Shown one piece after another: positions 13,865 through 63,442 of a stretch of DNA of 64,000 bases. Every line of letters begins with the position of its first letter. Positions within the stretch are counted from its first letter, which is position 1. The position numbers and the translations under genes were made by a program. This stretch comes from Streptomyces rubiginosohelvolus (lineage in GTDB: Bacteria; Actinomycetota; Actinomycetes; Streptomycetales; Streptomycetaceae): the NCBI RefSeq assembly GCF_014649875.1, contig NZ_BMTW01000020.1, positions 1-64,000 on the forward strand, given 5' to 3'. Under the pieces are notes generated by a model that worked only from the letters and a program-made list of their open reading frames with translations, had not been told where the DNA came from and did no database searches.

Positions 13865-13887
13865 CCCTCAAACCTACTGCCATGTCG

Positions 13888-13916: not shown

Positions 13917-13930
13917 GAGCAAGCGCTTAG
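13915..13930. promoter_or_regulatory. Operator copy 1, CTGAGCAAGCGCTTAG, upstream of maoC
   Basis: Imperfect palindrome with outer half-sites CTnAGC and GCTnAG and the inner perfect palindrome AAGCGCTT. It ends 47 bases before the maoC ATG. The identical 16-mer precedes the tetR gene at 15116-15131, so the TetR encoded between them probably controls both. Confidence 0.75.
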
Positions 13931-13977
13931 ACATCGCGCCGGATGGTGCGTCGAGCCGGAAGGCAGGGACCGGGAAC

Positions 13978-15068: not shown

Positions 15069-15115
15069 CGCCCAGGGCCCCTCTCCGTCAACAGGACGAA
15101 CACCATACCCCGAAC

Positions 15116-15131
15116 CTGAGCAAGCGCTTAG
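15116..15131. promoter_or_regulatory. Operator copy 2, CTGAGCAAGCGCTTAG, upstream of tetR
   Basis: Identical over 16 bases to 13915-13930 and also exactly 47 bases from the start codon it precedes. Confidence 0.75.
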
Positions 15132-15156
15132 GGGTGGTCCGGCCTGCGGTACGGGG

Positions 15157-15447
15157 TCAGAGCTTCTGGAACGGGTCGTGCTCGGCGAGGATCTTCTCCA
15201 GCCGGGCCTGGTCGACCCGGCTGTGGATCTGCCCGGCCTCCTGGCGGTCCCTGATCACCTTGGCGAGCGTGAAGCAGGACGTGACCAGGTAGAGCACGCC
15301 GATGGCGAGGAATCCGCGCACCCAGGCGTCGGCGTCGAGGAAGAAGATACCGAAGGCGACCGCGCCGATGGCCACCATGAAGGAGGCCACGGCCTGGACG
15401 TAGAAGGCTGCGGTGCTCTGCTGCTTGACCGATGTCGTGTCACTCAT
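15157..15447 (-). CDS. YiaA/YiaB-type two-helix membrane protein
   Basis: 96 residues. Two hydrophobic helices (about residues 14-37 and 43-62), with FYVQAVASFMVAIGAVAFGIFFLDADAWVRGFLAIGVLYLVTSCFTLAKVIRD, match the YiaAB two-helix domain, followed by a charged C-terminal tail. Function unknown. Start at ATG 15447, with only a weak ribosome-binding site. Confidence 0.75.
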   Translation of the reverse strand: MSDTTSVKQQSTAAFYVQAVASFMVAIGAVAFGIFFLDADAWVRGFLAIGVLYLVTSCFTLAKVIRDRQEAGQIHSRVDQARLEKILAEHDPFQKL

Positions 15448-15555
15448 GAGCCCAGCATCCGCCGACGTGGCGCACGCCACATCCGTGCCCGTACTCAGGC
15501 CGGTACTCAGACACCCGTACGAGCCCGGGCGCCGGCCAGGAGGCACGGACACCGG

Positions 15556-16707: not shown

Positions 16708-16740
16708 CGTGCGCCACCCCGCTTCCGACGATCGCTTAAT

Positions 16741-16751
16741 TAGCACTGCTA
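16741..16751. promoter_or_regulatory. TAGCA-N-TGCTA palindrome between acd and tetR
   Basis: TAGCACTGCTA is a perfect palindrome around one base, in a locally AT-rich patch between two divergent genes whose starts are 67 bases apart. A good candidate operator for the TetR gene on the right. Confidence 0.55.
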
Positions 16752-16774
16752 GTTTCTGGTTCGCAGGGCCTACT

Positions 16775-17473
16775 ATGAGCCGCATGGCCCGACCGCGCAA
16801 GCCCCTCCTCAGCAGAGACCGCATCGTCGGGGCGGCGAGCGCTCTCGTGGACGCCGAGGGGCTCGACGCCGTCTCCACCCGTCGACTGGCGGCCGTGCTC
16901 GGGGTGAGCGGGCCCTCGCTCTACAACCACTTCCGCAACAAGGAGGAGATCCTCGACGCCGTCGCCGACGCGGTCTCCGCACAGGTCGACCTGTCGATGT
17001 TCGAGGAGTCGGACCGGCGCGACTGGCGTGAGGCCCTGCACGACTGGGCGCTGTCCTACCGGGCCGCGCTCGCCGCGCACCCGCACATCGTCCCGGTCCT
17101 CGCCCGGGGCCCCGGCCGCCGCCCGGCGGGGCTGCGGGTGGCCGACGCGGTGTTCGGGGCGATGGTGGGGGCGGGGTGGCCGCCCGCGCAGGCGACCCGG
17201 ATCGGGGCGCTGATGCGGTACTTCATCACCGGCTCGGCGCTGGGCTCCTTCGCCGGGGGCTTCGTCGACGACGAGACCGCCTACGACCCGGCCGACTATC
17301 CGCACCTCGGCCAGGCCCACCTGCTCGCCGACCACCGCCGTCAGGTCGACGAAGGGGCCTTCGAGACGGGGCTGCGGGCGCTGCTCGACGGGCTGGCGCT
17401 CCAGTACGAGCAGTACGCGCGGGCGGTGGGCGACGACGCGGTGACGGTTCGGCCGGTGCCGAACCGTCCGTGA
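16775..17473 (+). CDS. TetR family regulator with TetR_C-type C-terminal domain
   Basis: 232 residues. HTH: RDRIVGAASALVDAEGLDAVSTRRLAAVLGVSGPSLYNHFRNKEEIL. The C-terminal half (WREALHDWALSYRAALAAHPHIVPVL and MRYFITGSALGSFAGGF) resembles the tetracycline-repressor-type C-terminal domain. Two ATGs, at 16775 and 16784, are possible; neither has a strong ribosome-binding site. Divergent from an acyl-CoA dehydrogenase, its probable target. An ArsR-like gene follows 14 bases downstream. Confidence 0.87.
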   Translation: MSRMARPRKPLLSRDRIVGAASALVDAEGLDAVSTRRLAAVLGVSGPSLYNHFRNKEEILDAVADAVSAQVDLSMFEESDRRDWREALHDWALSYRAALAAHPHIVPVLARGPGRRPAGLRVADAVFGAMVGAGWPPAQATRIGALMRYFITGSALGSFAGGFVDDETAYDPADYPHLGQAHLLADHRRQVDEGAFETGLRALLDGLALQYEQYARAVGDDAVTVRPVPNRP

Positions 17474-17487
17474 CGCACGCTGGACGT

Positions 17488-18234
17488 ATGGACCGTTCCC
17501 CCCGGCCACGGCCGCACGACTCCACCGCCGGACGCCTCGCCGCGCTGGCCGCCCTCCTCGCGGACGAGACCCGCGCGTCCTTCTGCCTGGCGCTGCTGGA
17601 CGGGCGGGCCTGGACCGCCGGTGAGCTGGCCCGGTACGCCGGTGTCGCCCCGTCCACCGCCAGCGAGCACCTGGGGCGGCTGGTCGCGGGCGGGCTGCTC
17701 GCCGAGGAACGGCAGGGCCGTCACCGCTATGTCCGGCTGGCCGGCGAGCGGGCGGCGCACCTGGTGGAGGAGCTGGCCTCCCGCACGATGTCCGGCGAGC
17801 CGGAGCCGCCGCGGTCCCTGCGGGCGGCGAGCGTGGGCAGTGCGCTGGCGCGGGGGCGTACCTGTTACGACCATCTCGCCGGGCGGCTCGGCATCCGGAT
17901 CACCGAGGCGATGACGGTACGGGGGCTGCTGCGGCAGGACACCGGGTTCGCGCTGACCGAGGCGGGCCTGGAGTGGTTCGGGGCGCTCGGCATCCCCCTG
18001 GACCGGTCGGGGCGGCGCCCCCTGGTGCGGGGCTGCCTGGACTGGACGGAGCGGCGTCCGCATCTGGCGGGGGCGGCGGGGGCGGCGCTGTGCGCGCATG
18101 TACTGGGGGTGGGGTGGTGCGAGCGGGTGGGGTCGGGGCGGGCGGTGCGGGTGACTTCGGCGGGGGTGGTGGCGCTGTCGGAGACGCTGGGCGTCGACCC
18201 CGCGTCCCTCACCGCCGACGGCCCGGCCGCCTGA
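17488..18234 (+). CDS. ArsR/winged-helix transcriptional regulator
   Basis: 248 residues. N-terminal ArsR winged helix (RLAALAALLADETRASFCLALLDGRAWTAGELARYAGVAPSTASEHLGRLVAGGLLAEERQGRHRYVRLAG). The long C-terminal part contains CYDHLAGRLGIRITEAM, found in a streptomycete subgroup of unknown ligand; no obvious metal-binding Cys pair. Probably co-transcribed with the TetR gene. Downstream lies the REP cluster. Confidence 0.8.
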   Translation: MDRSPRPRPHDSTAGRLAALAALLADETRASFCLALLDGRAWTAGELARYAGVAPSTASEHLGRLVAGGLLAEERQGRHRYVRLAGERAAHLVEELASRTMSGEPEPPRSLRAASVGSALARGRTCYDHLAGRLGIRITEAMTVRGLLRQDTGFALTEAGLEWFGALGIPLDRSGRRPLVRGCLDWTERRPHLAGAAGAALCAHVLGVGWCERVGSGRAVRVTSAGVVALSETLGVDPASLTADGPAA

Positions 18235-48167: not shown

Positions 48168-49253
48168 TCAGCCGATCTCGGCGCCGTAGGCGGCCAGCGC
48201 CTCCGGTACCGGCTGGAAGAAGGTCGTACCGCCCGCCGAGCAGTCGCCGCTGCCGCCCGAGGTCAGACCGAGCGCGGTGTCGCCCGCGAAGAGGGCGCCG
48301 CCGCTGTCGCCGGGCTCGGCGCAGACCGTCGTCTCGATGAGGCCGTTGACGATGTCGCCGTTGCCGTAGTTGACCGTGGCGTCCAGCCCGGTGACCTCGC
48401 CGTCGTGCACCTGGGTGGTGGAACCGCTGCGGGTGACCGCCTGGCCGACCGTCGCGTCACCGGCCTGGGTGATCGCCTGGGTGGAGCCGTCGTAGAGGTT
48501 CACCTCGCTCGGGTGCTCGGTGTCCGAGGTGTACTTGACCAGGCCGTAGTCGTTCTCCGGGAAGCTGGAGCCCTCGTTCGCCCCGATCTCCGCGCCGCCC
48601 TGGGAGTCGGACCAGCTGGTGACCGACTCGGTGCAGTGGCCGGCGGTCAGGAAGTACGGTTCGCCGTCCTTGACCACGTTGAAGCCGAGCGAGCAGCGGG
48701 AGCCGGAGCCGAAGATCGCGTCACCGCCCGCGATCAGCGGCTTGAACTCACCCTTGGTCTTCGCGAGTTCGGCCTTGCCGCCCAGGCCTTCGACCACGGC
48801 CGAGAGCTTCTTCCAGGCCGCGCCGTCGACCGTGCTGTCGGCGGTGACCTTCACCTTGTTGGTCACCGGGTCGACCGCCCAGGAGGTGCCCGGGATCGTC
48901 GCCTTGTCGGTGAGGGTCTGCCGGGCCGACTTCAGCTCGGTGAGGGAGTTCTGCACGATTCTGGCCTTGGCGCCCGCCTGGCGGACCTGCTCGGCGCCGG
49001 CCTCGTCGACGACGTTCACGACAAGGGCCTTCGCCGTGGTGTCGTAGTACGAGCCGGCCGCGTCCGCACCCAGATCACGGTCCAGGGTGTCGGCGAGCTT
49101 TCCGGCCGCGCCCGCGCTGAGGGTCTTGGCCGCGAACTGCGGCACATCGTCACTGGCGTTCGCAGACTGGAACGTGAATCCGGCTGCGACCAGGGCGACG
49201 ACCGCCGAGCCGGCCAGCGTCGCGCGCTTCCTGGATATGCGTCGATGCTTCAA
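48168..49253 (-). CDS. sprD: Streptogrisin D (chymotrypsin-like S1E protease)
   Basis: 361 residues from TTG 49253. Signal peptide ..[15 protein letters not shown], a pro-region of about 140 residues (alpha-lytic-type foldase), then mature [20 protein letters not shown]. Triad: His in LTAGHCTES, Asp in ENDYGLVKY, Ser in [10 protein letters not shown]; four cysteines form two disulfides. The mature enzyme is nearly identical to S. griseus SGPD. TTG 49253 has a perfect AGGAGG six bases upstream and gives a canonical signal peptide; the longer GTG start at 49346 (392 residues, the length I recall for the deposited SGPD precursor) lacks this. The gap 49254-49671 shows no other clear element. Confidence 0.93.
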
Positions 49254-49671
49254 CTTCGACCTCCTGTGGGGCCGTGCACGGAGCATGTGGGGTGCCCGTA
49301 CACGGAGGATGGGGCGCCCACTATTCCGAGGCCGGGAAACGCACACAAGGCCGACTTCCGGACGTGCACACGACACCGACGCTTCGCCCTCGGGTCGTTC
49401 ACTTACCCACGGTCATGCCATGTCGGTTCCCTTCGCAAACACCCGGTGCAACCGTCGGTCGCCCCTGGGTGAGGACTAGGCCTGTCCGAATTTCGCCCCT
49501 GCCGGTCCGGATGCCGTGCCCACCCGTCCGGATGGCGACGAACACCGTCCGCCCGGGGCCTGCTCCCACGTTCACAGTTCCTTTCGTCGAACAGTCCCCG
49601 TAACGCCTCTGATGGGTCATCATCGAAAAGGCGGCAGGCGCCCGCCGGATCGCTGAGCGGAGGAGGCACGG

Positions 49672-50583
49672 GTGCGCAGTCGGGTGCTCGCGGCGGACGG
49701 CCGGCATCTGATGGTGGAGCGGATGGGGGACCCGAGGGGAAGACCGGTCTTCCTCCTGCACGGCACCCCGGGCAGCAGGCTCGGGCCCGCTCCCCGGGGC
49801 ATGGTGCTGTACCAGCGCCATACCCAGCTGATCGCCTACGACCGCCCCGGATACGGGGACAGCGACCGGCACGAGGGCCGCCGGATCAAGGACGTCGTCG
49901 AGGACGTCCGGGCCATCGCCGACTCGTTGGGCCTGGAGCAGTTCGCCGTGGTGGGCCGCTCCGGAGGCGCCCCGCACGCCCTGGCCTGCGCGGCGCTGAT
50001 GCCGGAACGCATCACCCGGACCGCGGCGCTCGTCAGTCTCGCGCCCCCGGACGCGGCCGGTCTCGACTGGTACGACGGGATGACCGCGTCCAACGTCCTC
50101 GCGTATTCCACGGCGGCGCACGACCCGGACAGCCTGGCGGAGGACTTCATCGTCCGCTCGGCCCAGATCCGGCGGAACCCGGTCCGGCTCCTGGACGACC
50201 TGCGCCGGGAGCTGACCGACTCCGACCGCATGGTGGTCAACGACGTGGGCATCCGGTCCATGCTGCTGCGCAACTACAGCGAGGGGCTGCGCCACTCGGC
50301 GTACGGCTGGATCGATGACGCCCTCGCGTTCTCCAGCCCCTGGGGGTTCGATCCCTCCCGGATCACCGGCGAGGTGCTCCTCTGGCACGGGGTGCAGGAC
50401 GTCTTCGCCCCGGTCGGCCACTCCCGCTGGCTGGCCGGGCAGATCCCGGGGGCCACCGCCGTACTCGAACCGTCGGCGGCCCACTTCGACGCGTTCCCCA
50501 GGCTCCCCCGCATCCTGGACTGGCTGCTGGACGCGCGGGAGCACCCGTGCCGGACGCTGCCGACGGCCGTGCCGGGAGGATGA
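49672..50583 (+). CDS. Alpha/beta hydrolase
   Basis: 303 residues. Fold markers: VFLLHGTPGSRLGPAPRG (oxyanion), AYDRPGYGDSD, nucleophile VVGRSGGAPHALAC, then late Asp (WHGVQDVFAPV) and His (PSAAHFDAFPR). The Gly-Arg-Ser-Gly-Gly elbow is typical of a streptomycete group of unknown substrate, unlike the usual GHSxG. No signal peptide. GTG 49672 follows GGAGGAGG. The stop codon lies in the loop of a terminator shared with the fxs operon. Confidence 0.87.
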   Translation: MRSRVLAADGRHLMVERMGDPRGRPVFLLHGTPGSRLGPAPRGMVLYQRHTQLIAYDRPGYGDSDRHEGRRIKDVVEDVRAIADSLGLEQFAVVGRSGGAPHALACAALMPERITRTAALVSLAPPDAAGLDWYDGMTASNVLAYSTAAHDPDSLAEDFIVRSAQIRRNPVRLLDDLRRELTDSDRMVVNDVGIRSMLLRNYSEGLRHSAYGWIDDALAFSSPWGFDPSRITGEVLLWHGVQDVFAPVGHSRWLAGQIPGATAVLEPSAAHFDAFPRLPRILDWLLDAREHPCRTLPTAVPGG

Positions 50584-50599
50584 ACCCTCCCGGCACGGC
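50566..50599. terminator. Shared terminator of the hydrolase gene and fxs operon
   Basis: 14-bp perfect stem (50566-50579 with 50586-50599); the left arm encodes the last residues of the hydrolase. Confidence 0.85.
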
Positions 50600-50602
50600 C
50601 GG

Positions 50603-53600
50603 TCACACGGACATGGGTTCCAGTTCCCGCCGGAACCGCTCATCGGTCCGGGCGACGCGGACCAGCGGGTGGTCGTCGCCGAGCTGCCGCGACAGCTCGG
50701 GGACCACGTCCGCCCGCAACTGCGCCGCCTCGTCCTCCCGCCCCATGGCGTCGAGCGTGACCGCCATGTTCGAGGTCATGGCCAGGGTCTCCGGATGGTG
50801 CGCTCCGAGCGCCTCGCGCAACTGGCCGAACAGCCGCTGCTCGGTCTCCAGCACGATGTCCAGCTCACCCCGGTCCGCCGTCGCGCTGGCCAGGTTCATC
50901 ACACAGAACAGGGTGCTGGGGTGCTCGCGGCCGAAGGCCTCGCGCATGCCCGCGACGACCAGCTTCAGCACCCGCTCCGCCGCTTCCGGCTCACCGGCCC
51001 CGGTCAGATAGACGCCGAGGTTGTTCTGCGCGGCCAGGGTGTACGGGTGCTTCTCCCCCGGCACCTTCATGTACTGGTCGACGACTTCCTGCGCCGTGTC
51101 CCTCGCCTCGGCACTCTCGCCGGCTGCGAACAGGTCGGCGGCGAGGTTGAGGTCGCAGGCCAGTGAATCGGGGTTGGCGGTGGTGTACTTCGCCCGGTAC
51201 CGGGCACGGGTCGCCACCGTGAGACGGCGCGCGTCCTCCAGCCGGCCCGCCCTGCGCAACGACACCGCGAGGCTCTTCGCGGCGCTCAGAGTGGCGGGGA
51301 AGCTGCGGCCCATCGTCTCCTTGAAGCTGTTGTACGTCGTGCTGAGCAGCGCCGCCGAGTCCTCGTACCGCCCGACCTCCCGCAGGTCACGGGCGAGGTT
51401 CATGGCGGAGGAGAGGCTGTAGGGGTGTTCCGCTCCGAGCACCTGGGAGCGCAGGTCGTAGACGTCCTGGTCGATCTCCCGGGCGCGGGCGTACTGGCCG
51501 ACGCTGCGCAGGTTCAGCGCCAGGTTGTTGGCCGCGGCCAGGGTCCGGGGGTGGGAGTCGTGGAAGATCTGCCCGAACCCCTCGTGGGCCTCGGTCGCCA
51601 TCTCGATCGCCCGCGCGTAGTCCCCCAGCAGCCCGAGGTCGATGGCCAGACTGCTGGTGGTCATGTACGTGTGCGGGTGCTCGGGACCCAGCACCGCCCG
51701 CTGGCGTTCCAGCGTGATCTCGTCCAGTTCCTTCGCCTCGACGTAACGACCGCGGGTGCGCAGGATGTTGGAGAGGTGGAAGCAGAGGTAGAGGTACTGC
51801 AGATCACTGGTGCCCAGCTTCTCCCGCCAGATGTCGCGCAGTTCGTCGCCCAGCGCACCAGCGGTCCTGACGTCACCGCGCTTCCAGAGGTAGCGGACCC
51901 GGTCGATCAGGAGCCTACGGGTCTCCGGCTCCGTGCAGTTGCGGGCGTCGGAGGGGCCGAGGTGCGGCCAGATCGTGGCGAAGACGGGCCAGGTGGCCGG
52001 GTTGTCTATCGGCTCGTCGTCGTCGGGCCGGGCCCCGGCGAGAATGCGGTGGACCACGTGCCGGGCCTCGCGCTGCTCCTCCTCGGTGAGCTGCGCCTTG
52101 ATCACGGCCTGGACGAGACGGTGCACCTGGATGGAGTTGGAGACCTGGTCGACCTTGGCGAGGGCGAAGCGGCCGATCTCCCGGATGACCCGGCCGAGCA
52201 CGAGCTTCTCCTGGAGCGAGGAGTCGTACGGCTTCAGCGCGTCGATCATCTCCTTGCTGTAGAGGAGGTTCGCGGAGATCGGCTCGGGTGCGAAGAAGGC
52301 GCAGAGCTGGAGCAGCCGCACGGCGGCGGGTGAGCGCTCCTGGAGCCGGGAGATGGAGATGTTCCAGGTCGCTGCGACCGGTTCCGGGTAGCCGACGGGC
52401 TGGTTGAGCGCGAGGACCTGGGGCGCCTGCTGGGCGAGCTGTTCGAGATAGGTGCCGATGGGGGTGGCGGTCTCCGCGATCCACGCGGCCGCCTGCTCCA
52501 CGGCCAGCGGCAGGTCGCCCACCGCGGTCGCCACTTGGTCGGCGTCCTCGTCACTGAGTCCCGGGGCCCGGCGCTTGAGGTGTTCGATGGACTCCTCGCG
52601 GAGGAAGACGTCCACGGGCAGCGCGTCGCCGTGCTGGGACCAGCTCTGATTGCGGGAGGTCACCAGGATGTGGCCGGACCCGCCCTGCGGGAAGTAGCGG
52701 CGCAGTTGCTCCGGGTCGTCCGCGTTGTCGAAGATCAGCAGCCAGCGGTCGGAGGGCACGCCGCGCCGCAGCAGGTCGACGGCCTCCTGGGAGGCGGCCG
52801 CCATGTCGTCGCCGCCCTGGGCGCCGAGCCGGCCGGCGAGTTCGGCGAGCGAGGCGACGACGTCGTCGGGCTGCTCGGACGATATCCACCACACCAGGTC
52901 GTAGTCGGCCATGAAGCGGTGCACGTACTCCAGGGCCACCTGGGTCTTGCCGACGCCGCCGAGTCCGTACAGGGTCTGCGGCTGCGGCAGGACGACGGCC
53001 AGGCCGCCGCCGAGCTGGTCGCGCATCCGCTCCAGGACGAGCGAGCGGCCGGTGAAGCCGGGGTTGCGGGGCGGCGCGTTCCAGATCCTCGGGACGGTGC
53101 CGGGGAAGCGGGGCCCGGGCGACACCCCGTCGGTCACCTGCACCGGGCGGTCCAGGGCCCGCATCACGGCGGTGGTGGCGTGCACCTCGTCCAGCCGGTA
53201 GAGGTCGACCGGGTTCCGGTCGATGTACGGGGTGGTCAGGCGTACGTCCCCGACCCGCAGCGGGATCAGCCGGCGGCGGCCGCTGCCGATGGCCTCGGAA
53301 GCGGTCCGCTCCCACAGCTCGACCGCGCGCTGGGACTTGAGGTAGGCGCTGGAGAGCAGGACCACGGTGCGGGCGGCGTTCTCGGCGGTGGTGTCGGCGG
53401 GCTCCTCGGGCGGGCGTTCGGCGGAGACGTCGCGCGGAACGACGCGGAAACCGGCCCGGGTGAGGATCGATTCGAGCCAGTCGGCCCACATCCGGTTCTC
53501 CGCCACATAGCTGAGGTGGAGATCGGCGGGCAGGGCGGGCCTGCGCCGGGTGAAGGCGTCGCGGATCCGCAGCCGGACCTCTTCGCCGACCGGGGGCATC

Positions 53601-54538
53601 GAGGTGATCTCCCGGTCGGTGATGACCGCGGTGAGCCGTTCGAAGGCGGAGAGCAGCGAGTTGGTGAGCCCGGCCTCGTCGCCGAAGGTGGCCAGCGTCT
53701 CCTCGTAGGCGTAGTAGGGCCGGTACGGGATCTCCACCGCCCCCCAGTAGGCGGTGAGTTCGTCACCGGACAGATCGCGCGGCAGCCGGTCGAACTTGAG
53801 CCGGGCCAGCGCCCGTCCGGCGTCCGCCTTCTCCTTCTCGCCCTCGTCGATCCGCATCGGTACGGGGTAGAGGGCGATCGGGCGGCCGGTGTTGCGCTCG
53901 GCGATCTGGCGGGCGACGGAGGCCGCTCCGTCGATGGACTGGTCGCTGAGGGTGAAGCAGTCGACGAGCACGTCCGGGAGGTGGACGGTGCAGATGTCGG
54001 CGATGTCGCTGAGGCCGGTCCGGCTGTCGATGAGGACGTAGTCGTAGTTGGCCTTCATGTCGTCGCGCAGGGCGTCGAAGAAGTGGCCGCCGCCGAACCG
54101 GTCGTAGAAGTTGTCCCAGTCGAAGGTGGAGACGGTGGCGCTGTACTCGCGGTTCTGCCGTCCGGCGGAGACGAAGTCGAGCGTGCCGCCCTGCGGGAAC
54201 TCCCAGCCGAGCGACTCCGGGGTCAGCGACACGGCGTGCGGCTGGATACGGGCGTAGTCGCGGTGCCAGTCCTCGGCGCGCTGGGCGGGGCTGGTCGCGG
54301 CCCAGGCGTACTCGGTGATCAGGTCGATCACACCGGTGGTGGCGCCGAGGGTGGCCGGGTCGAGGAAGGGGTGGAAGAACCGGTGGAGTCCGGGGGCCTC
54401 CAGGTCCCAGTCGACGGCCAGCACCCGCTTGCCGTTGGCCGCGAGGATCCAGGCGGTGTTGGCAAGCGCCATGGTGCGCCCCGTACCGCCCTTGTACGAG
54501 TAGAAGGTGACGATGCGCCCGTCACGACCGGCACTCAT
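50603..54538 (-). CDS. fxsT: FxsT: ParA-like, TIR-like, NB-ARC and TPR protein of the FxSxx-COOH system
   Basis: 1311 residues. Order of parts: a ParA/MinD-like ATPase with deviant Walker A YSYKGGTGRTMALAN (residues about 10-300); a TIR-like segment (about 336-460, LPADLHLSYVAENRMWADWLESIL.. VVLLSSAYLKS); an NB-ARC STAND NTPase with P-loop TLYGLGGVGKTQVALEYVHRF (about 520 on) and the LPLAVEQAAAWIAET region; and TPR repeats (about 910-1311; repeated LGPEHPHT/GxxHPxTL units). This is the composition of the FxSxx-COOH system TPR protein. It looks like an NLR-type sensor that may recognise the modified peptide or its target (inference). ATG 54538 overlaps the fxsC stop by 4 bases. Confidence 0.88.
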   Translation of the reverse strand: MSAGRDGRIVTFYSYKGGTGRTMALANTAWILAANGKRVLAVDWDLEAPGLHRFFHPFLDPATLGATTGVIDLITEYAWAATSPAQRAEDWHRDYARIQPHAVSLTPESLGWEFPQGGTLDFVSAGRQNREYSATVSTFDWDNFYDRFGGGHFFDALRDDMKANYDYVLIDSRTGLSDIADICTVHLPDVLVDCFTLSDQSIDGAASVARQIAERNTGRPIALYPVPMRIDEGEKEKADAGRALARLKFDRLPRDLSGDELTAYWGAVEIPYRPYYAYEETLATFGDEAGLTNSLLSAFERLTAVITDREITSMPPVGEEVRLRIRDAFTRRRPALPADLHLSYVAENRMWADWLESILTRAGFRVVPRDVSAERPPEEPADTTAENAARTVVLLSSAYLKSQRAVELWERTASEAIGSGRRRLIPLRVGDVRLTTPYIDRNPVDLYRLDEVHATTAVMRALDRPVQVTDGVSPGPRFPGTVPRIWNAPPRNPGFTGRSLVLERMRDQLGGGLAVVLPQPQTLYGLGGVGKTQVALEYVHRFMADYDLVWWISSEQPDDVVASLAELAGRLGAQGGDDMAAASQEAVDLLRRGVPSDRWLLIFDNADDPEQLRRYFPQGGSGHILVTSRNQSWSQHGDALPVDVFLREESIEHLKRRAPGLSDEDADQVATAVGDLPLAVEQAAAWIAETATPIGTYLEQLAQQAPQVLALNQPVGYPEPVAATWNISISRLQERSPAAVRLLQLCAFFAPEPISANLLYSKEMIDALKPYDSSLQEKLVLGRVIREIGRFALAKVDQVSNSIQVHRLVQAVIKAQLTEEEQREARHVVHRILAGARPDDDEPIDNPATWPVFATIWPHLGPSDARNCTEPETRRLLIDRVRYLWKRGDVRTAGALGDELRDIWREKLGTSDLQYLYLCFHLSNILRTRGRYVEAKELDEITLERQRAVLGPEHPHTYMTTSSLAIDLGLLGDYARAIEMATEAHEGFGQIFHDSHPRTLAAANNLALNLRSVGQYARAREIDQDVYDLRSQVLGAEHPYSLSSAMNLARDLREVGRYEDSAALLSTTYNSFKETMGRSFPATLSAAKSLAVSLRRAGRLEDARRLTVATRARYRAKYTTANPDSLACDLNLAADLFAAGESAEARDTAQEVVDQYMKVPGEKHPYTLAAQNNLGVYLTGAGEPEAAERVLKLVVAGMREAFGREHPSTLFCVMNLASATADRGELDIVLETEQRLFGQLREALGAHHPETLAMTSNMAVTLDAMGREDEAAQLRADVVPELSRQLGDDHPLVRVARTDERFRRELEPMSV

Positions 54539-55875
54539 AGGTCCTCCGCTTCCGTCGCAGGGTCGTGCGGGTCGGGTATGAAGCTCGTGTTGCCCATGGG
54601 GCCGGTGAGCCGGGTGCGCTCGCCGGATCCGCCACCGGGTCCGGGCGGATAGGCCTTGGCGTGCTTCAGATACTGCTGGGCGGCCACCTCGACGATCTGA
54701 GGCAGCAGTTGGCCGAACGCCTCCATGGAGGGCACTCCTTTCGCCGCCGCGCGGCACAGGGCCCGGCCCTGGCCCATCTTGACCGGCATGGTTTCCTCGA
54801 GCTTCTCGATGAGCTCGGTCTCCGCCGCCCTGCTCTGGTGGTCGTCGCGGCTCCAGGGGACGACCAGGGTCACCCAGGGCCGGTTCTCCGCGTCGAAGGC
54901 GGCGAGCCTGCGGCGATGGTCCTCGTCCCGGAGGGCCCAGCGGTCGACGAGCAGGATCTCGGGGGTGCTGGGCGGGGCCTTGCCGTCCTGCCGGTCCTCG
55001 TCGAACGAGGTGATGACCGCCTGGTAGTTGAGCGAGCGGACCAGCTCCTCGGCCACGTAGGCCAGGGGCCGGGCCGAGGCCGGGTAGTAGGGGTTCCAGT
55101 CCTGGGGGTGGTCGCCGTAGTGGTCGCTGTTGCGTCCGTCGGGCAGATCGTGGCGGGTGGGCGCGGCGATGGTGATCTGCATCGGCCGGGGTGCGCCGAC
55201 TCCGCTGCTGGGGGAGCCGAAGGCGCTGGGGGCGAGGCGGTAGTCGACGGGCCGGCCGGTGTCGATACGGACCGAGTCGGCGACGCTGACGATGCGTTTG
55301 GCCAGTTCGTAGACGGCCCGTTCGTACTCCTCGGCGAAGAGTCTGAGCTTGATCAGGCCGTAGAGGCCGTCGCTGACGTACCGTTCACCGAAGTCGCGGT
55401 GGTTGAACTGCAACCGCTCCGCTGAGCCCGGCAGTTGGCTTGGGGGCACGGGCACCCAGAGCGCGGGGACGATGGCCTCGGCGGGCTGGTTGGAGCGGGC
55501 CCGGTGGTGGATGGCCCGCTGTTCGAAGGCGTACCACTCCTTGCCGCACATCTCGCTGGCGAAGTAGCGCGGCGAGAACAGCGGCACGAAGACCCGGCAG
55601 GTGGCGAGGACGTCACCGAGCCGTTCCGACCAGCCCTCGCCGGAGCGTATCTCCCGGTCCATGAAGCCTGCGGGCGCGCCGGCGGGTAAGTCGGTCATGG
55701 CCATCACATGGCCGCAGAGATCCTGGAACAGCCGCTCGACCCACATATCGGGGTCCGTGCCGCCGCCGTATCCCGGCGTGTGGGCGTAACTCAGAAAGAA
55801 ATACGGCCGATGGCCCACCGCTCGCTGTTGCGTCGATGCGTGCACACGACCCCCGTCCTGTATGAGCACTCGCAT
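54535..55875 (-). CDS. fxsC: FxsC: TIR-like protein of the FxSxx-COOH system
   Basis: 446 residues. TIR-like N-terminal domain (about 24-190): RPYFFLSYAHTPGYGGGTDPDMWVERLFQDLC, GFMDREIRSGEGWSERLGDVLATCRVFVPLFSPRYFASEMCGKEWYAF; the glutamate of GKEW is in the position of the TIR NADase Glu. The C-terminal half (about 240-420) is particular to FxsC (VILLVDRWALRDEDHRRRLAAFD-type segment, WVTLVVPWSRDD). Start uncertain: ATG 55875 lacks a ribosome-binding site, and GTG 55845, ten codons in, is plausible. Follows fxsB by 74 bases. Confidence 0.87.
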   Translation of the reverse strand: MRVLIQDGGRVHASTQQRAVGHRPYFFLSYAHTPGYGGGTDPDMWVERLFQDLCGHVMAMTDLPAGAPAGFMDREIRSGEGWSERLGDVLATCRVFVPLFSPRYFASEMCGKEWYAFEQRAIHHRARSNQPAEAIVPALWVPVPPSQLPGSAERLQFNHRDFGERYVSDGLYGLIKLRLFAEEYERAVYELAKRIVSVADSVRIDTGRPVDYRLAPSAFGSPSSGVGAPRPMQITIAAPTRHDLPDGRNSDHYGDHPQDWNPYYPASARPLAYVAEELVRSLNYQAVITSFDEDRQDGKAPPSTPEILLVDRWALRDEDHRRRLAAFDAENRPWVTLVVPWSRDDHQSRAAETELIEKLEETMPVKMGQGRALCRAAAKGVPSMEAFGQLLPQIVEVAAQQYLKHAKAYPPGPGGGSGERTRLTGPMGNTSFIPDPHDPATEAEDL

Positions 55876-55949
55876 CCCGGTAGGAGGAAGGGAGTGCAAG
55901 CGAACTCATCATTCCGGAGCGGACCGCTTTCCACCCCCCTGCCGTTCGG

Positions 55950-58313
55950 TCATTCGAACGTCACTTTCCGGTCAGGCGACAGGACGTTCGATGGGTGACC
56001 GGACGGCGGGACCGTTCTACCGCGATTCCTCCCGGTGGCGCTCCGTGTTCCGCTGATCTCCTTACGGACAGCCGCGATCAGCTGTTTTCCGTCGACTGTC
56101 GTCTCCGCCGCGTTCTCGATCATGTCGAGAGCTTCCGGAACGCCCGTGAGGAAGTGCGGATCGTAGAGTCCGAGGCCCGCCCGTTCGAATGTCTCGGCCA
56201 GCAGTCGGGAGAACGTCACGTGTTCGCTCCCCCAAGGCGTTCGATGGTCCCAGGTACCGTCCAGGGCGTAAAGATCCGTCACTTCACCGAGTGCCCGCAG
56301 TTTCGCCCGCCGGAATGCGCTCAGCATCGCGAGCGCCAGTTCGTCGCCGTCGGCCGCTTCCCCGACGCCGAGCGCACCGTGGCCGTGGCGCCCCGGCTCG
56401 GCCGTACCGGTGGTCAGCGGGGTCACCGTGGTGAGCGTACGGGCCGCCTCGGCCGCCTGCTCGGGAACGGCGTCGGCCAGCAGCGCCCAGGCACCGGCGA
56501 TCCGGTGCGCCCAGGTCTCGGCCCGCTCCGCGGTGAGCCGGTCGGCCGGAGGGGTCCCGAAGGCGTCGCGGAAGGGGTCGAGGTCGTCCAGCAGGAGGAC
56601 CGGAGCGGGAGCTTGTCGCAGGGTGCGAACGGGGAGCCAGTGCGGGCCTTCCGGTTCCTCGCGCGCGATACGCAGCTCCGGGCCGGGCAAGACGGGAGCG
56701 CCGGGCTCGGCGGCGAGCCCCGCGTCCGGCCGGCGGACGAGGAATCCGTCGTCGGTGGCGAGCACGAGGCACACGCCCCGCGCCCCTGGCCCGCCGACGA
56801 CCGCGGTGCCGAGGGTGGGCAGATGCAGGCTGCCGTCGCGGTACGCCACCGGCACCGGCAGGTCGAGTCCGGCCCGGACGGCGGCCGCGGCCACGCAGGC
56901 GCCGAGCCGTTCGGCGGCGGGTTCCGTCAGAGGCCGGCCGGCGTGGACGTCCTCCAGGGCACCGATCAGCCAGGTGCGGGTGGAGGGGTGGGCGAGCACC
57001 GTGTCGAGCGCATCCGCGCCCGGAGTGTCGGCCTCCACTCTCGCCGCGAGCCGCCAGGCCTCGTCCCAGAGCTCTCCGCCCCGTCCGTCCAGGGTGTCGT
57101 GGAGCACCGCGAGCAGAGTGCGGGTCAGGTCCAGCTGGGCGGCGAGCAGGGCGCCCGGCGCCCGGACGGCGGGTGACTCGGTCGCGGCGGCGGTCCGGTC
57201 CTCGATTCCGCGGATCAAGGCGGCCAGGTCGGCGCAGTAGACCGAGGGGTTGTCGAAGCCGCCCCCGGCGCCGTGCCCGGAGCGGTACCGGTGGGTGTAG
57301 AGCCCGCCGCCGCACGAGCGCACGACCGGGCAGCGACGGCAGGTCTCGCTGACTCCGGCCAGGCCGAGCTGGCGCGCCCGGACCCCGGGGTGGGCGGCGA
57401 CCTCGTCGAAGGTGTTGCGGAAGACGTCGAACCCGGTGGCGGCGGCGCCCTCGTAGGCGCTCTTGAGCGAATCGACCTGTTCCAGGGTCCCGTCGGTCTC
57501 GATGACGACGAGGTCGGTGGGGGCGAGACCGAGTGACTCGGTGAGGCTGGGGCCGCCGCTCAGGCTGGAGAGCACCGAGGCGAACATCCGGACGGGCATG
57601 GGGCGGCCCTGTTCCGTCCAGCGGTCGAAGACCGACAGGAGCCATGCGGCGTACGCGGTGGGCGAGCCGTCCGGCCGTGGCGGCGGGTCGTCCCAGGTGG
57701 CGTGCGGCAGCAGGAAGTCGACGAGCGGGGGTTCCAGCTCGGCGAGGGCGTCGTGCACGGCCACCGGGTCGTTGTGGATGTCGACCGTGCAGAGCAGGCC
57801 GAGGTCCAGGTGGCGGTAGCGCTCCTCGCGGAGCAGCTCGACCGCTCGCAGCACCATCGGGTGGCTGCTGCGCCCGTTGGCGAACCGGCGGTGGCGGTCG
57901 TTGGCCGCGCGGTCGCCGTCGAGCGAGATCCCGACGCGGACGTGGAACTCGTCGAAGAGGTCGAGGTAACGGGGGCTGAGCTGGACTCCGTTGGTGTGGA
58001 TCCTGAGGTCCAGCTCAGCGATGCCGTTCAGGGCCGAGCCGAGCTCCTCGCAGACCCGTCGCAGTCGCGCGGGTCCTGCCAGGAGCGGTTCCCCGCCGTG
58101 CAGGATCACTGTGACGGAGAAAAGCGCATGAGTCGCCGCGTGCTCGGCAAGGCGCCGGGCAGTCCAGGAAATCGCCTCGTCAGAGATGGTCCTGGGGCGG
58201 GTGAGCCAGCTCTGATCCGCATGTTCGTAGACATAGCAGTGATCACAAGCAAGATCACACCTGCTGTGCACTTTGAGCACGAATTCACGGAAGGGGACCA
58301 GGGGTCCTGTCAT
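55950..58313 (-). CDS. fxsB: FxsB: radical SAM/SPASM peptide maturase with degenerate HEXXH domain
   Basis: 787 residues. The N-terminal radical SAM domain has Cys19, Cys23 and Cys26 (CDLACDHC) for the SAM-binding [4Fe-4S] cluster and LHGGEPL; a SPASM region with several cysteines (CRRCPVVRSCGGG, then VYCADL) ends near residue 370. Relatives join the ring of Phe to the beta-carbon of Ser two residues on, forming a three-residue cyclophane. The C-terminal half (about 390-787) is the domain usually carrying an HEFQH-type motif before KLxAL; here residues 665-669 read SAFRR before AKLRAL, so the metal site seems lost. ATG 58313, 30 bases after the precursor gene. Confidence 0.9.
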   Translation of the reverse strand: MTGPLVPFREFVLKVHSRCDLACDHCYVYEHADQSWLTRPRTISDEAISWTARRLAEHAATHALFSVTVILHGGEPLLAGPARLRRVCEELGSALNGIAELDLRIHTNGVQLSPRYLDLFDEFHVRVGISLDGDRAANDRHRRFANGRSSHPMVLRAVELLREERYRHLDLGLLCTVDIHNDPVAVHDALAELEPPLVDFLLPHATWDDPPPRPDGSPTAYAAWLLSVFDRWTEQGRPMPVRMFASVLSSLSGGPSLTESLGLAPTDLVVIETDGTLEQVDSLKSAYEGAAATGFDVFRNTFDEVAAHPGVRARQLGLAGVSETCRRCPVVRSCGGGLYTHRYRSGHGAGGGFDNPSVYCADLAALIRGIEDRTAAATESPAVRAPGALLAAQLDLTRTLLAVLHDTLDGRGGELWDEAWRLAARVEADTPGADALDTVLAHPSTRTWLIGALEDVHAGRPLTEPAAERLGACVAAAAVRAGLDLPVPVAYRDGSLHLPTLGTAVVGGPGARGVCLVLATDDGFLVRRPDAGLAAEPGAPVLPGPELRIAREEPEGPHWLPVRTLRQAPAPVLLLDDLDPFRDAFGTPPADRLTAERAETWAHRIAGAWALLADAVPEQAAEAARTLTTVTPLTTGTAEPGRHGHGALGVGEAADGDELALAMLSAFRRAKLRALGEVTDLYALDGTWDHRTPWGSEHVTFSRLLAETFERAGLGLYDPHFLTGVPEALDMIENAAETTVDGKQLIAAVRKEISGTRSATGRNRGRTVPPSGHPSNVLSPDRKVTFE

Positions 58314-58343
58314 TCCGCCATTCTATCCACTTCTGACGTCTGC

Positions 58344-58508
58344 TCAGAGAGCTGAACTGAAAGTGGAGATCCGGGTGGACCGGGCCGTTGTCGCACCGAT
58401 TGCGCGGTCGAGCTTCCTGGCGGCCTCGGCGCTGCGGACATCGGTCGCGGCAAGGGTCGCGCGGGTCTTCGCAGAGGCGAAGTCGGGGGTGGTTCCGTAG
58501 GTCTTCAC
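58344..58508 (-). CDS. fxsA: FxsA: FxSxx-COOH RiPP precursor peptide
   Basis: 54 residues from GTG 58508, with AGGACGG just upstream. It ends ISTFSSAL: Phe50-x-Ser52 followed by exactly two residues and the C-terminus, the defining FxSxx-COOH signature. The rest (VKTYGTTPDFASAKTR.. then a helical AEAARKLDRAIG stretch) looks like a leader. It is too short for routine gene calling but sits immediately upstream of, and on the same strand as, the radical SAM gene. A second F-x-S (Phe10-Ala11-Ser12) occurs near the N-terminus. The product would be a Phe-Ser cross-linked peptide; its biological role is unknown. Confidence 0.88.
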   Translation of the reverse strand: MKTYGTTPDFASAKTRATLAATDVRSAEAARKLDRAIGATTARSTRISTFSSAL

Positions 58509-58875: not shown

Positions 58876-59586
58876 TCACTCGTTCACCGGTTCCGCGCCG
58901 GGCACGTTGTACTCCTCCCGGGAGCCACGCATGCAGTCCAGGACCCGTTCGTGGCTGTCCCCCACGACGTCCGTGACCCGCACCCGGACCTGGAGCACGT
59001 CGATCCGTTCGACGAACCGCCGCAAGAACACCCCCACCGGCACCGTGTCGTAGGCCCCGGTGCCGACCAGCGGAAAGCCGGTTCCGAAGGCGGTGAGCAG
59101 GTAGTCCCGCCCGGCCGAGAGTCCGTCCGCCGTCAGGGTGGCCACGACGTCCGGGACGGCGACCCAGACCGCGGTCCCCGTTCCGGACCCACCGCTCGGC
59201 ACCACGCGGCACTCCCAGCTCTCGATCACGGCGATGTGCTGACCGCCGTTCAGTATCCCGACACGCCAGGCGGGTTCCCCCTCGACGAGCAGTCCTGTGC
59301 GCCAGGAGCCACTCCATCCGAGGTAGGGCCGGACCGTGCGGGCGTACTGCGCCCTGGCCAGTACGGCACCGGTCGCCACGGCCAGCAGACTTCCGAGCGC
59401 CTCCATGTCCAGCAGTTGCAGCCGCCAGGGCCAGTCGCCCCGGACACCGGGCGAGACATTGGCCCGGACGGCCTCCCACAGCAGGACCAGCGTCAGGATC
59501 GCGAGCAGAACCAGGGGAGCGGTGAAGAGCAACGGGCTGCGGCGCACCCTGCGCTGGCTGTCCGGGAGCGGCGTGCCGTCAGCCAC
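58876..59586 (-). CDS. Hypothetical membrane protein upstream of fxs
   Basis: 236 residues, unrecognised. Two hydrophobic helices (about residues 18-40 and 60-80) are followed by a soluble, beta-rich domain (ILNGGQHIAVIESWECRVVP.. VWVAVPDVVATLTADGL) that should face the cytoplasm. GTG 59586 is the first possible start, but a GGAGGG abuts it too closely, so the true start is unsure. On the same strand as the fxs operon but separated by 367 bases; divergent from the SLATT gene. Confidence 0.65.
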   Translation of the reverse strand: MADGTPLPDSQRRVRRSPLLFTAPLVLLAILTLVLLWEAVRANVSPGVRGDWPWRLQLLDMEALGSLLAVATGAVLARAQYARTVRPYLGWSGSWRTGLLVEGEPAWRVGILNGGQHIAVIESWECRVVPSGGSGTGTAVWVAVPDVVATLTADGLSAGRDYLLTAFGTGFPLVGTGAYDTVPVGVFLRRFVERIDVLQVRVRVTDVVGDSHERVLDCMRGSREEYNVPGAEPVNE

Positions 59587-59873
59587 CCCTCCGTCCGGAT
59601 CCCGCTCGATGACCCCTCCCCCGCCCGGAAGCGAACGCGGCCGTCAAAGACGGCGACAACTCGCCTGTGGTTCACCTCAGTTGGGCAACCTTGCCATAGT
59701 GCCACCGCGCGCGGAAGAACACCTGGACACAGTGGCCGAACCCAGCCGTACGGGCCCTCCGGGCAGCCGGGACGCTCTTGCCCGGCCCCGGCCTCCCACC
59801 TACTCTCGTGGCCCCGGGCGGGTCAGGCGTGACGGCCGGCCGGGTCATACGACAACTGCAGACGGAGGCGACC

Positions 59874-60800
59874 GTGACGGCGCTGCCCGAGCCGCTGAGA
59901 TCCATGGTCTTCAGGAACGATGACCTGCCTGAGCTGTTCCATCACACGGACAGGGTCGCCGTGGCCCGCCAGCGCGAGGCCGTGAACACCACCCGGGTGC
60001 AGCTGGCGCTGCTCGTGGCCGGCACGGTGCCCGCGGCGCTGCCCTGGCACGCCGACGACGGGCCCGCGGCCCGGGCGCTGTACGGCGCGGCGGTGCTGGC
60101 CTATCTGGGCGTGCTCTTCACGACCTTCCTCGCCTCCCAGCGCAAAGCAAAGTCGCATTGGCAACTCAACCGCTCCGCAGCGGAGTTCATCAAATCGAAC
60201 TGCTGGCGCTACGCGGTGCACGGCGCCCCGTTCGACAGTGCGTCCGAGCATCCGGAGGCGCTGTTCGCGAATCGTCTGGAGGACGGTCTCCAGGAGCTGA
60301 GGAAGGTGGGCTGGGCCGACCCGCGCGAGGAGCTGCCGGATTCCGGCGGGCTCATCACGGAGTCCATGCGCGCGTTGCGGAACAAGGCGTACACGGTCCG
60401 CAAGGAGACGTACGTACGGGATCGGCTCATCGAACAGCGCCGTTGGTACCGCCGGCGTCAGCAGGCCTCCCGGCGCGGGGCGCTCATGTGGTCGGGCGCC
60501 ATTGTCGCGCTGACGCTCCCGGCGCTGGCACTGAGCGTGCTGCAGACCTTCGGGGTGGGCCGGTCGTTCGGGCTGACGGGGGCGCTGTCCGCGGCGGCGG
60601 CGGCCTGTCTCGCCTGGAACGAGATGCGCCGGCACCATCCGCTGATCTCGGCGCACTCACTGGTGGAGCAGGACCTGGAGTCGATGCAGGCCGCCATGGA
60701 GACCACCCTCACCGAACGGCACTGGCCGGCGGCGGTGTTCGAGACCGAGCGGATCGTGTCGCCCGAGCACACCGACTGGCTGGTCAGACACCGCGTGTGA
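59874..60800 (+). CDS. Tandem SLATT/DUF4231 membrane protein (predicted effector)
   Basis: 308 residues with two hairpin pairs of transmembrane helices: about residues 34-52 and 59-80, then 203-222 and 232-248. REAVNTTRVQLALLVAG..FLASQRKAKSHWQLNRSAAEFIKSNCWRYAV is the DUF4231/SLATT-type first module; YVRDRLIEQRRWYRRRQQAS and the terminal ERIVSPEHTDWLVRH fit a second. SLATT domains are predicted pore-forming effectors in nucleotide-activated conflict systems. GTG 59874 has GGAGG 5 bases upstream. Tail to tail with a SLOG gene 24 bases away. Confidence 0.8.
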   Translation: MTALPEPLRSMVFRNDDLPELFHHTDRVAVARQREAVNTTRVQLALLVAGTVPAALPWHADDGPAARALYGAAVLAYLGVLFTTFLASQRKAKSHWQLNRSAAEFIKSNCWRYAVHGAPFDSASEHPEALFANRLEDGLQELRKVGWADPREELPDSGGLITESMRALRNKAYTVRKETYVRDRLIEQRRWYRRRQQASRRGALMWSGAIVALTLPALALSVLQTFGVGRSFGLTGALSAAAAACLAWNEMRRHHPLISAHSLVEQDLESMQAAMETTLTERHWPAAVFETERIVSPEHTDWLVRHRV

Positions 60801-60824: not shown

Positions 60825-61304
60825 TCAGCCGCGCAGCACCCCGTCGCGCCAGATCACGGTGACCGGGCGGCCGAGCGTGCGGGCGTACGTGACGATGTCG
60901 CCCGTACCGCCGAGGCCCCGGGCGGGTAGGCCGTCCCAGACCGCGAGCAACCGGTCGCAGTGGTCGGCGATGTAGGCGCCCGCCGCGTAGTACGCCTCGT
61001 CGGTGGAGTGCGGGAAGTCGAGCCGGACCTCCCGTGCCGCGCGCGCCTTGAGCGTCCGGTAGCGGGCGAGGTCGGCGGCGTTGTCGAAGCAGGCCTCGTA
61101 GTCGCCGCTGGGGATCACGGCGGTCAGTTCGGCGCCGCAGGTGAGGGCGAGGTCGGCGAAGAGCTGGTCGGCGCCGACCGCGAGACTGGAGAGGGCCTGG
61201 CTGGGGCGGTCGAGTCCGCAGAGGGCGGCCCGCATTCCGGCGAGCACGTGGGCCTCCGCCTCGGCGGGGATGGAGCGGTGACCGGTCACTCCGATGCGAT
61301 ACAC
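60825..61304 (-). CDS. SLOG family protein (predicted nucleotide sensor or synthase)
   Basis: 159 residues. SLOG features: VYRIGVTGHRSIP at the N-terminus, SLAVGADQLFADLAL, and the C-terminal DRLLAVWDGLPARGLGGTGDIVTYARTLGRPVTVIW, a Rossmann-like fold that binds nucleotides or their derivatives. Proteins of this superfamily are predicted to make or sense the signal that triggers SLATT membrane effectors, one of which is the convergent neighbour. GTG 61304 is the likely start. Confidence 0.83.
   Translation of the reverse strand: MYRIGVTGHRSIPAEAEAHVLAGMRAALCGLDRPSQALSSLAVGADQLFADLALTCGAELTAVIPSGDYEACFDNAADLARYRTLKARAAREVRLDFPHSTDEAYYAAGAYIADHCDRLLAVWDGLPARGLGGTGDIVTYARTLGRPVTVIWRDGVLRG

Positions 61305-61490: not shown

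Positions 61491-63442
<1,952 letters not shown>

What the first reader, a model, noticed from the sequence alone, without database searches (positions are those of the whole stretch)
50603..58508. Complete FxSxx-COOH RiPP operon including its short precursor gene
Four minus-strand genes run fxsA (54 residues, C-terminus FSSAL), fxsB (radical SAM/SPASM), fxsC (TIR-like), fxsT (ParA/TIR/NB-ARC/TPR), with a 4-base overlap between the last two and one terminator at the end. The family is recognised in databases but its peptide function is, to my knowledge, undescribed. Coupling a cyclophane-forming maturase with NLR-like and TIR-like proteins suggests a signalling or immune role instead of a simple antibiotic. 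No exporter or protease is encoded nearby, so the peptide may act inside the cell.
Basis: partly seen in the sequence, partly recalled or inferred. Interest (0 to 1): 0.88.

Follow-up and report, generated by a model that had tools for sequence, protein, structure and literature searches.

The report
Peptide-linked TIR/NLR immune-like gene cassette
A Streptomyces chromosome carries a known kind of gene cluster that makes a small ring-bearing peptide, and we find that it is inherited as a fixed cassette with an NLR-like switch, a TIR protein and a membrane protein, which suggests that the peptide controls a cell-defence or cell-fate response rather than serving as a secreted antibiotic.

Summary
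In detail: fxsA, fxsB, fxsC and fxsT lie at the stated places, with F-x-S at the FxsA end, a 4-base fxsC/fxsT overlap and a strong hairpin after fxsT. The family is known: NCBIfam has models for all four, and PMC7159879 describes such peptide plus AP-ATPase systems as conflict systems. A SLATT membrane protein, a SLOG-fold protein and an alpha/beta hydrolase flank the operon and come and go with it: among 150 genomes of the genus, SLATT is in 40 of 42 with this FxsB type and in 3 of 108 without. A different chromosomal setting and an inverted form keep the cassette together; many relatives add an AAC(3)-like gene. FxsC keeps the presumed catalytic glutamate, the FxsT TIR does not. FxsC also forms the C-terminus of proteins in VMAP-MoxR systems that show no fxsA or fxsB nearby, so it looks like a portable effector. 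Best reading: an intracellular cyclophane peptide that licenses or tunes an NLR/TIR switch whose output probably runs through SLOG and SLATT. Parts and linkage are shown; the signalling chain is inferred. New variant of a known kind.

The parts
58344..58508 (-). fxsA, 54-aa precursor peptide, C-terminus F50-S-S52-A-L
   Evidence: TIGR04268 22.9 bits, below cut-off 28; such a gene in 113 of 114 loci, controls 0-2 of 114
55950..58313 (-). fxsB, radical SAM/SPASM cyclophane maturase (res. 8-371) fused to a degenerate aKG-HExxH hydroxylase domain (res. 379-753)
   Evidence: TIGR04269, NF040587; C19/C23/C26 and C325/C328/C334/C360 at least 98% conserved in 114
54535..55875 (-). fxsC, N-terminal TIR (presumed catalytic Glu113 counted from the ATG) plus FxsC C-terminal domain; start unsure
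   Evidence: NF040588, TIGR04276; TIR fold; E113 invariant in 37 of 37, at least 98% of 119
50603..54538 (-). fxsT, ParA/MinD-like (KGGTGRT) - TIR - NB-ARC - DUF7779 - TPR, NLR-like switch
   Evidence: NF040586, NF047398, Pfam, motifs
50556..50606 (-). GC-rich hairpin between convergent fxsT and the hydrolase
49672..50583 (+). alpha/beta hydrolase (Ser97, Asp243, His271 as likely triad), convergent with fxsT
   Evidence: Pfam; co-occurrence; these residues at least 98% conserved in 115
59808..60800 (+). SLATT protein (SLATT_3 + SLATT_1, predicted membrane effector); start unsure
   Evidence: Pfam/NCBIfam; co-occurrence
60825..61304 (-). SLOG-fold protein (YpsA/DprA/LOG-like), convergent with the SLATT gene
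   Evidence: no Pfam or NCBIfam hit; model pLDDT 94.7; YpsA Z 17.9
58876..59586 (-). 236-aa protein with hydrophobic N-terminal part, optional neighbour
   Evidence: no family hit; found by tblastn in 8 of 38 and 17 of 73 loci with fxsB, fxsC and fxsT

Best explanation
A triceptide (FXS) maturation operon built into a conserved intracellular TIR/NLR signalling cassette. SHOWN by sequence: the gene set, its co-occurrence, intact NB-ARC motifs in FxsT, a conserved presumed catalytic Glu in FxsC but not in the FxsT TIR, and reuse of FxsC as a terminal domain in VMAP-MoxR systems. INFERRED: FxsB cross-links Phe50 to Ser52 of FxsA; the modified C-terminal peptide stays in the cell and acts on FxsT, the NLR-like switch, most likely through its TPR region; FxsT, when switched, gathers FxsC by TIR-TIR contact; FxsC then cleaves NAD+ or a related nucleotide; the SLOG protein senses or processes the product, and the SLATT protein acts on the membrane, stopping or killing the cell (defence or programmed cell fate). 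The hydrolase, and in relatives the AAC(3)-like enzyme, probably trim or modify the peptide.
For: Co-occurrence over 150 genomes (tallied): SLATT (E<=1e-30) in 40 of 42 with and 3 of 108 without FxsBH; SLOG in 40 of 42 and 2 of 108 at E<=1e-40, a line drawn after seeing the gap (at E<=1e-15 the SLOG query hits 76 of 150); hydrolase (E<=1e-60) in 42 of 42 and 15 of 108. Of 73 genome-contig loci with fxsB, fxsC and fxsT, 71 also have SLATT, SLOG and hydrolase; the two others (L199, L214) stop at a contig edge. The set is kept where the outer flanks differ and in a clade with the operon inverted, where SLATT directly follows fxsT (13 loci). FxsC as C-terminus of SAV_2336_NTERM proteins beside AAA_5/MoxR-like and VMAP genes in 3 of 3 records scanned (L200, L248, L250; L249 seen by annotation only); in these four stretches no match to the window FxsB, no CxxxCxxC in frames over 250 codons and no F-x-S-x-x end; the FxsC tree forces at least 2 changes. 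FxsC TIR: Z 12.2 to SPARTA TIR, 10.9 to RUN1 TIR; E113 conserved, while FxsT position 407 is E in 51 of 116. SLOG fold: YpsA Z 17.9, DprA and ShosA 15.2, ThsA entries 6.9-7.8. PADLOC: the FxsT ParA part matches a candidate defence model, PDC-M28B (78 bits).
Against: No experiment. Exceptions: G040 has fxs without SLATT or SLOG at the thresholds used, G057 has SLATT/SLOG with no fxs beside them, G029 has fxsT alone in the 20 kb fetched, G054 keeps fxsA, fxsB and hydrolase but not fxsC, fxsT, SLATT, SLOG. More distant FXS operons (L228-L234) show no SLATT or SLOG in the stretch fetched, so the SLATT step is not general. SLATT is on the opposite strand in most loci. No species tree was made, so Fisher values overstate independence. 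No sign of a defence island: one tRNA, 11 kb off; no FxsC in 50,697 phage records. FxsC model confidence is modest (pLDDT 68.3; Foldseek best E 2.8e-3). The ThsA SLOG match is weak.
Confidence: 0.45

Rival explanations
1. Same parts, but a native developmental or stress cell-fate switch of Streptomyces rather than phage defence; the ligand is the peptide or a host state.
For: FxsC C-terminal profile in 4 of 396 genomes drawn over the phylum, all of the window's genus. No fast-evolving sensor: among 19 near relatives dN/dS is 0.010 (FxsC TIR), 0.102 (NB-ARC), 0.147 (TPR). One chromosomal setting is shared by most of the 40 genus loci. The abstract of PMC7159879 places such conflict systems mainly in multicellular prokaryotes (listing).
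Against: Patchy presence (42 of 150), a deletion remnant (G005), FxsC fusions on plasmids typed mobilizable, and one in Kitasatospora.
Confidence: 0.25
2. The peptide is an inhibitor: matured FxsA holds FxsT/FxsC off, and loss of the peptide or of its maturation triggers them.
For: Small precursor and effectors in one operon; conserved C-terminus. Inference only.
Against: fxsT without fxsA/fxsB in the 20 kb fetched from G029; FxsC in VMAP-MoxR loci with no fxsA/fxsB seen nearby. Both weak.
Confidence: 0.2
3. FxsA gives an exported antibiotic or signal; fxsC/fxsT are regulators of its production.
For: RiPP operons often make antibiotics (general knowledge); trypsin-family genes flank the cassette.
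Against: No exporter among the cassette proteins scanned; no DNA-binding domain in FxsC or FxsT by Pfam; the flanking protease family is not seen around the most distant loci.
Confidence: 0.08
4. SLATT, SLOG and hydrolase are only old chromosomal neighbours of an ordinary FXS operon.
For: In most genus loci the wider flanks are also shared, as expected of vertical descent. No species tree was made.
Against: Presence follows fxs; the set is kept where outer flanks differ and where the operon is inverted.
Confidence: 0.12

Closest known systems
FxSxx-COOH (FXS) systems, NCBIfam TIGR04268/04269/04276, NF040586-8
   Same: FxsB, FxsC and FxsT over the curated cut-offs; precursor with F-x-S end
   Different: FxsA below its cut-off; FxsB is the lost-HExxH form; SLATT, SLOG and hydrolase are near-fixed extra partners that I did not see described
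Standalone peptide-processing systems with AP-ATPase (PMC7159879)
   Same: FxSxx peptide, radical SAM/SPASM, AP-ATPase with a MinD/ParA-like domain
   Different: The paper puts an MPTase at the core; here that domain is fused and degenerate. The SLATT passages there concern GAP1 systems; its supplementary tables were not read
VMAP-MoxR-vWA ternary conflict systems
   Same: Share the FxsC TIR plus C-terminal module
   Different: No VMAP or MoxR protein among the window proteins scanned; NLR-like FxsT is there instead
Thoeris (TIR plus SLOG), recalled
   Same: TIR protein with presumed catalytic Glu plus a SLOG-fold protein
   Different: SLOG here is stand-alone and YpsA-like, the presumed output is SLATT, plus an NLR and a RiPP; no Thoeris model among PADLOC hits

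Membership tests
FXS triceptide system | FxsB-type radical SAM/SPASM with cluster cysteines | tested here: met
   TIGR04269 604.9 bits, cut-off 370; Cys conserved
FXS triceptide system | Short precursor ending F-x-S-x-x | tested here: met
   Ends FSSAL; such a frame in 113 of 114 loci, controls 0-2 of 114; L075 and L078 have Ala for Ser. Curated HMM score 22.9 is below its cut-off 28
FXS triceptide system | Phe-Ser cyclophane actually formed | not testable with these tools
   Known for MscB per review PMC11002830 (passages); not shown for this protein
Active aKG-HExxH beta-hydroxylase | HExxH motif and family score | tested here: not met
   TIGR04267 30 bits, cut-off 40; better hit is the inactivated form NF040587; no HExxH in the sequence
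Enzymatic TIR (FxsC) | TIR fold and catalytic Glu | tested here: met
   Fold; E113 in 37 of 37. Which Glu is catalytic is set by motif, recalled; activity untested
Enzymatic TIR (FxsT) | Conserved catalytic Glu | tested here: not met
   Position 407: E 51, D 27, N 15, Q 5, A 5, others 13, of 116; position set by motif, recalled
STAND/NLR-like switch | P-loop, Walker B, TSR, GLPL-like and MHD-like motifs plus repeats | tested here: met
   GKT, FDN, TSR, DLP and HRLV each in 116 of 116; NB-ARC and TPR by Pfam
SLOG-SLATT pair | SLATT domain and SLOG-fold partner adjacent | tested here: met
   the 42 SLOG genomes at E<=1e-40 are the SLATT genomes except G077
Thoeris | ThsA or another listed Thoeris effector | tested here: inconclusive
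   No Thoeris model among PADLOC hits of 8 proteins; ThsA fold match only Z 6.9-7.8
Anti-phage defence system | Protection from phage | not testable with these tools
   No experiment. PADLOC: FxsT PDC-M28B 78 bits over its ParA part, FxsB pVip 30.8, SLATT PDC-M09A 16.2
VMAP-MoxR-vWA system | VMAP, MoxR and vWA genes | tested here: not met
   None among the eight window proteins scanned by Pfam and NCBIfam

The most novel reading that the evidence does not exclude
A RiPP-gated immune circuit: a ribosomal cyclophane peptide is the dedicated intracellular ligand of a bacterial NLR (FxsT), whose non-catalytic TIR recruits a catalytic TIR (FxsC); the nucleotide made is read by a SLOG protein that opens a SLATT membrane effector, a Thoeris-like output placed under control of a modified peptide.
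Probability: 0.22. Interest if true: 0.88.

Novelty: new variant of a known kind. Interest (0 to 1): 0.62.

Why it matters
The chemistry of triceptides is known, but I found no shown biological role for the FXS branch in the papers I could search. Tying the peptide genetically to an NLR-like switch, a TIR protein with a conserved presumed catalytic Glu and a SLOG/SLATT pair gives that question a concrete circuit, testable in harmless Streptomyces. If true, a post-translationally modified peptide governs an NLR from inside the cell. It also shows FxsC as an effector cartridge shared between two conflict-system architectures.

Tried and rejected
Exported antibiotic: no exporter among the cassette proteins scanned. 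Hypervariable phage sensor: not supported, since TPR, NB-ARC and TIR of FxsT are under purifying selection among 19 near relatives (dN/dS 0.147, 0.102, 0.247); the fastest segment is the degenerate HExxH domain of FxsB (0.376) (Nei-Gojobori pairs against the window only; dS is large for the distant groups). Phage or plasmid spread: no FxsC in the phage collection; 5 plasmid records, of which 3 annotated ones carry FxsC inside a long protein, the S. chartreusis record has no annotation here and the Rhizobium one (23% identity) was not opened. Fold of the FxsC C-terminal domain: residues 227-410 gave only Z 7.3-8.8 matches (arginine decarboxylase N-terminal part, response regulators and others), inconclusive. 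Promoter scan: nothing found. Hydrolase as a strict marker: rejected, since it occurs in 15 of 108 genomes without FxsBH; five of these lie beside other FXS operons (L229, L230, L231, L232, L234), one is a remnant (L226), three showed no fxs in 20 kb (L239-L241), six were not fetched (of these G097 has an FxsT match next to it by coordinates). Not done: a species tree. The named set (80 kept of 378 relatives) and the 40 genus loci overlap in strains and are not added. The genus set is 40 of the 41 other FxsBH genomes; G028 is split over contigs and was looked at apart (L245, L246). Literature: searches listed no paper that I could see linking SLATT or SLOG to FXS; the library lacks most subscription journals, and supplements could not be read.
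Full report
WHAT IS THERE. FxsA scores under its curated cut-off (22.9 against 28), but 113 of 114 loci (window, genus draw and named set together; strains overlap) carry a short frame with an F-x-S/A/T-x-x end at the start of fxsB. The same filter finds 2 of 114 on the opposite strand and 1 and 0 of 114 in a control stretch further upstream. The tally is FNSAL 64, FSSAL 26, FNSSL 11, FDSAL 4 and eight single endings, one of which (L053) is a wrong-frame pick whose right frame reads FNSAL. Two loci (L075, L078) have Ala in place of Ser. L071 gave none.

FxsB is a radical SAM/SPASM enzyme with conserved cysteines, fused to a degenerate hydroxylase domain: TIGR04267 is below cut-off, NF040587 'inactivated beta-hydroxylase extension form' well above. 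In 19 near relatives this domain is the fastest of the 11 segments tested (80.8% identity, dN/dS 0.376), against 95.2% and 0.136 for the radical SAM part. PMC12636437 (passages) cites work in which a HExxH domain fused to a radical SAM enzyme is an aKG-dependent hydroxylase rather than the annotated peptidase; the same paper reports HExxH enzymes that cleave peptide backbones, so a processing role of such domains is not excluded in general. Here the motif is gone.

THE UNIT IS LARGER. Gene clustering of 40 fetched loci plus the window showed constant neighbours. Scans of the same 150 genomes (tallied): FxsBH over cut-off in 42; SLATT in 43, shared 40 (FxsBH only: G040, G054; SLATT only: G007, G057, and G077 at 35% identity). 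The SLOG query hits 76 of 150 at E<=1e-15; 42 stand apart at E<=1e-40 (50% identity or more), the same genomes as SLATT except G077. Hydrolase: all 42 and 15 others. G007 carries a more distant fxs operon next to SLATT and SLOG (L224). In genome contigs (378 relatives, 80 kept), 73 loci hold fxsB, fxsC and fxsT, and 71 of these also SLATT, SLOG and hydrolase; L199 and L214 stop at contig edges. In the genus draw 38 of 40 loci hold the three, 36 with all partners; L073 (G040) lacks SLATT and SLOG, L075 has SLOG about 10 kb away, L068 is degraded, L072 is a contig end.

Three main arrangements occur: SLOG, SLATT, fxsA-B-C-T, hydrolase (15 genus and 54 named loci); the same with an AAC(3)-like gene (PF02522) between fxsB and fxsC (13 and 12); and the operon inverted, hydrolase first, SLATT directly after fxsT (8 and 5). 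With a crude gene caller and clusters at 45% identity, the ten most distant genus loci and the contig-end locus L072 show none of the outer neighbour families of the main setting. Remnants in G005 (parts of hydrolase, fxsT end and SLOG; L226) and the SLATT/SLOG pair without fxs in G057 (L225) point to losses.

THE PROTEINS. The 159-aa neighbour has no Pfam or NCBIfam hit, but its model (37 of about 120 loci aligned, pLDDT 94.7) matches YpsA (Z 17.9, rmsd 2.8, 153 aligned), DprA and ShosA (15.2), LOG proteins (about 10.9) and, weakly, ThsA entries (6.9-7.8, one of them with 3'cADPR): it is SLOG-fold. The other neighbour carries SLATT_3 and SLATT_1. FxsC residues 23-201 match TIR domains of SPARTA (Z 12.2, rmsd 2.8, 137 aligned) and RUN1 (10.9); the whole model has pLDDT 68.3 and a best Foldseek E of 2.8e-3. 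E113 is invariant in 37 of 37. In FxsT the matching place (407) varies among 116 sequences while GKT, FDN, TSR, DLP and HRLV are fixed, as is the ParA-type KGGTGRT. So the likely enzyme is FxsC and the FxsT TIR is likely a docking part (inference; the catalytic place is set by motif, recalled).

FxsC AS A CARTRIDGE. In two plasmids typed mobilizable (Streptomyces; L248, L249), one Kitasatospora plasmid (L250) and a contig of Streptomyces sp. sk2.1 (L200), FxsC forms the C-terminus of a long protein. In the three scanned (not L249, a near copy of L248 by annotation) the start matches SAV_2336_NTERM and the neighbours include an AAA_5/MoxR-like and a VMAP-domain protein; no vWA model was hit, so 'vWA component' is by position. 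In the four stretches held there is no match to the window FxsB, no CxxxCxxC in frames over 250 codons, and no F-x-S-x-x end. In a tree of 45 FxsC rows (of about 130 at hand) the fusions need at least two changes by well supported branches; L248, L249 and L200 fall among cassette FxsC proteins, on branches that are not fully supported. FxsC therefore seems to work as a terminal module without the peptide, so the peptide more likely acts upstream, on FxsT.

OWN GENOME AND SPREAD. The window's genome has one FxsB over the cut-off. A second FxsT-like protein on contig C9 lies with VMAP-C/VMAP-M0/EAD2, AAA_5 and HExxH-type neighbours, the VMAP type of PMC7159879. FxsC C-terminal profile: 4 of 396 phylum genomes, all in the window's genus; none in phages.

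MECHANISM AND ITS LIMITS. The chain peptide - FxsT - FxsC - SLOG - SLATT is inferred from domain logic. Distant FXS operons (L228-L234) show no SLATT/SLOG nearby, so that output belongs to this branch. Whether the purpose is phage defence or a native cell-fate switch cannot be told. AAC(3)-like genes also occur before fxsB (L224) or beyond the hydrolase on the other strand (L231, L233), which suggests a real role, perhaps acetylation of the peptide (inference).

LITERATURE. PMC7159879: passages and section 24 read. PMC11002830 and PMC12636437: passages. Nguyen 2020 and Morishita 2024: seen only as references there. That MscB belongs to the FxsB family (IPR026335), and the details of Thoeris, are recalled.

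Noticed in passing
L052:8105-8878, L073:8017-8787, L224:8862-9629, L231:15224-15985 and others: AAC(3)-like (Antibiotic_NAT) gene inside or beside many FXS operons in several placements; not seen between fxsB and fxsC in the window's near relatives.
   Followed up: partly
L248:6614-11185, L249:6488-11185, L250:7181-11191, L200:8300-11230: FxsC as the C-terminus of SAV_2336-type proteins beside VMAP and MoxR-like genes (L249 by annotation only), two of them on plasmids typed mobilizable.
   Followed up: yes
L226 (G005:C1) 9239-10438: Deletion remnant: partial hydrolase, fxsT tail and SLOG fragment side by side.
   Followed up: partly
L227 (own genome, C9) 6323-17992: A VMAP-type system with an FxsT-like NB-ARC/TPR protein, an AAA_5 protein and an HExxH-type neighbour.
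   Followed up: partly
L242 (G029:C16) 8657-12580: fxsT 88% identical to the window's, with no other cassette gene found within the 20 kb fetched.
   Followed up: no
window 48168-49376 and 61491-63086: Two trypsin-family genes with alpha-lytic protease prodomains (streptogrisin-like) on either side of the cassette.
   Followed up: partly
window 58876-59586: Orphan 236-aa protein between SLATT and fxsA, in a subset of loci; also beside the hydrolase in L068 and, in pieces, L239.
   Followed up: partly
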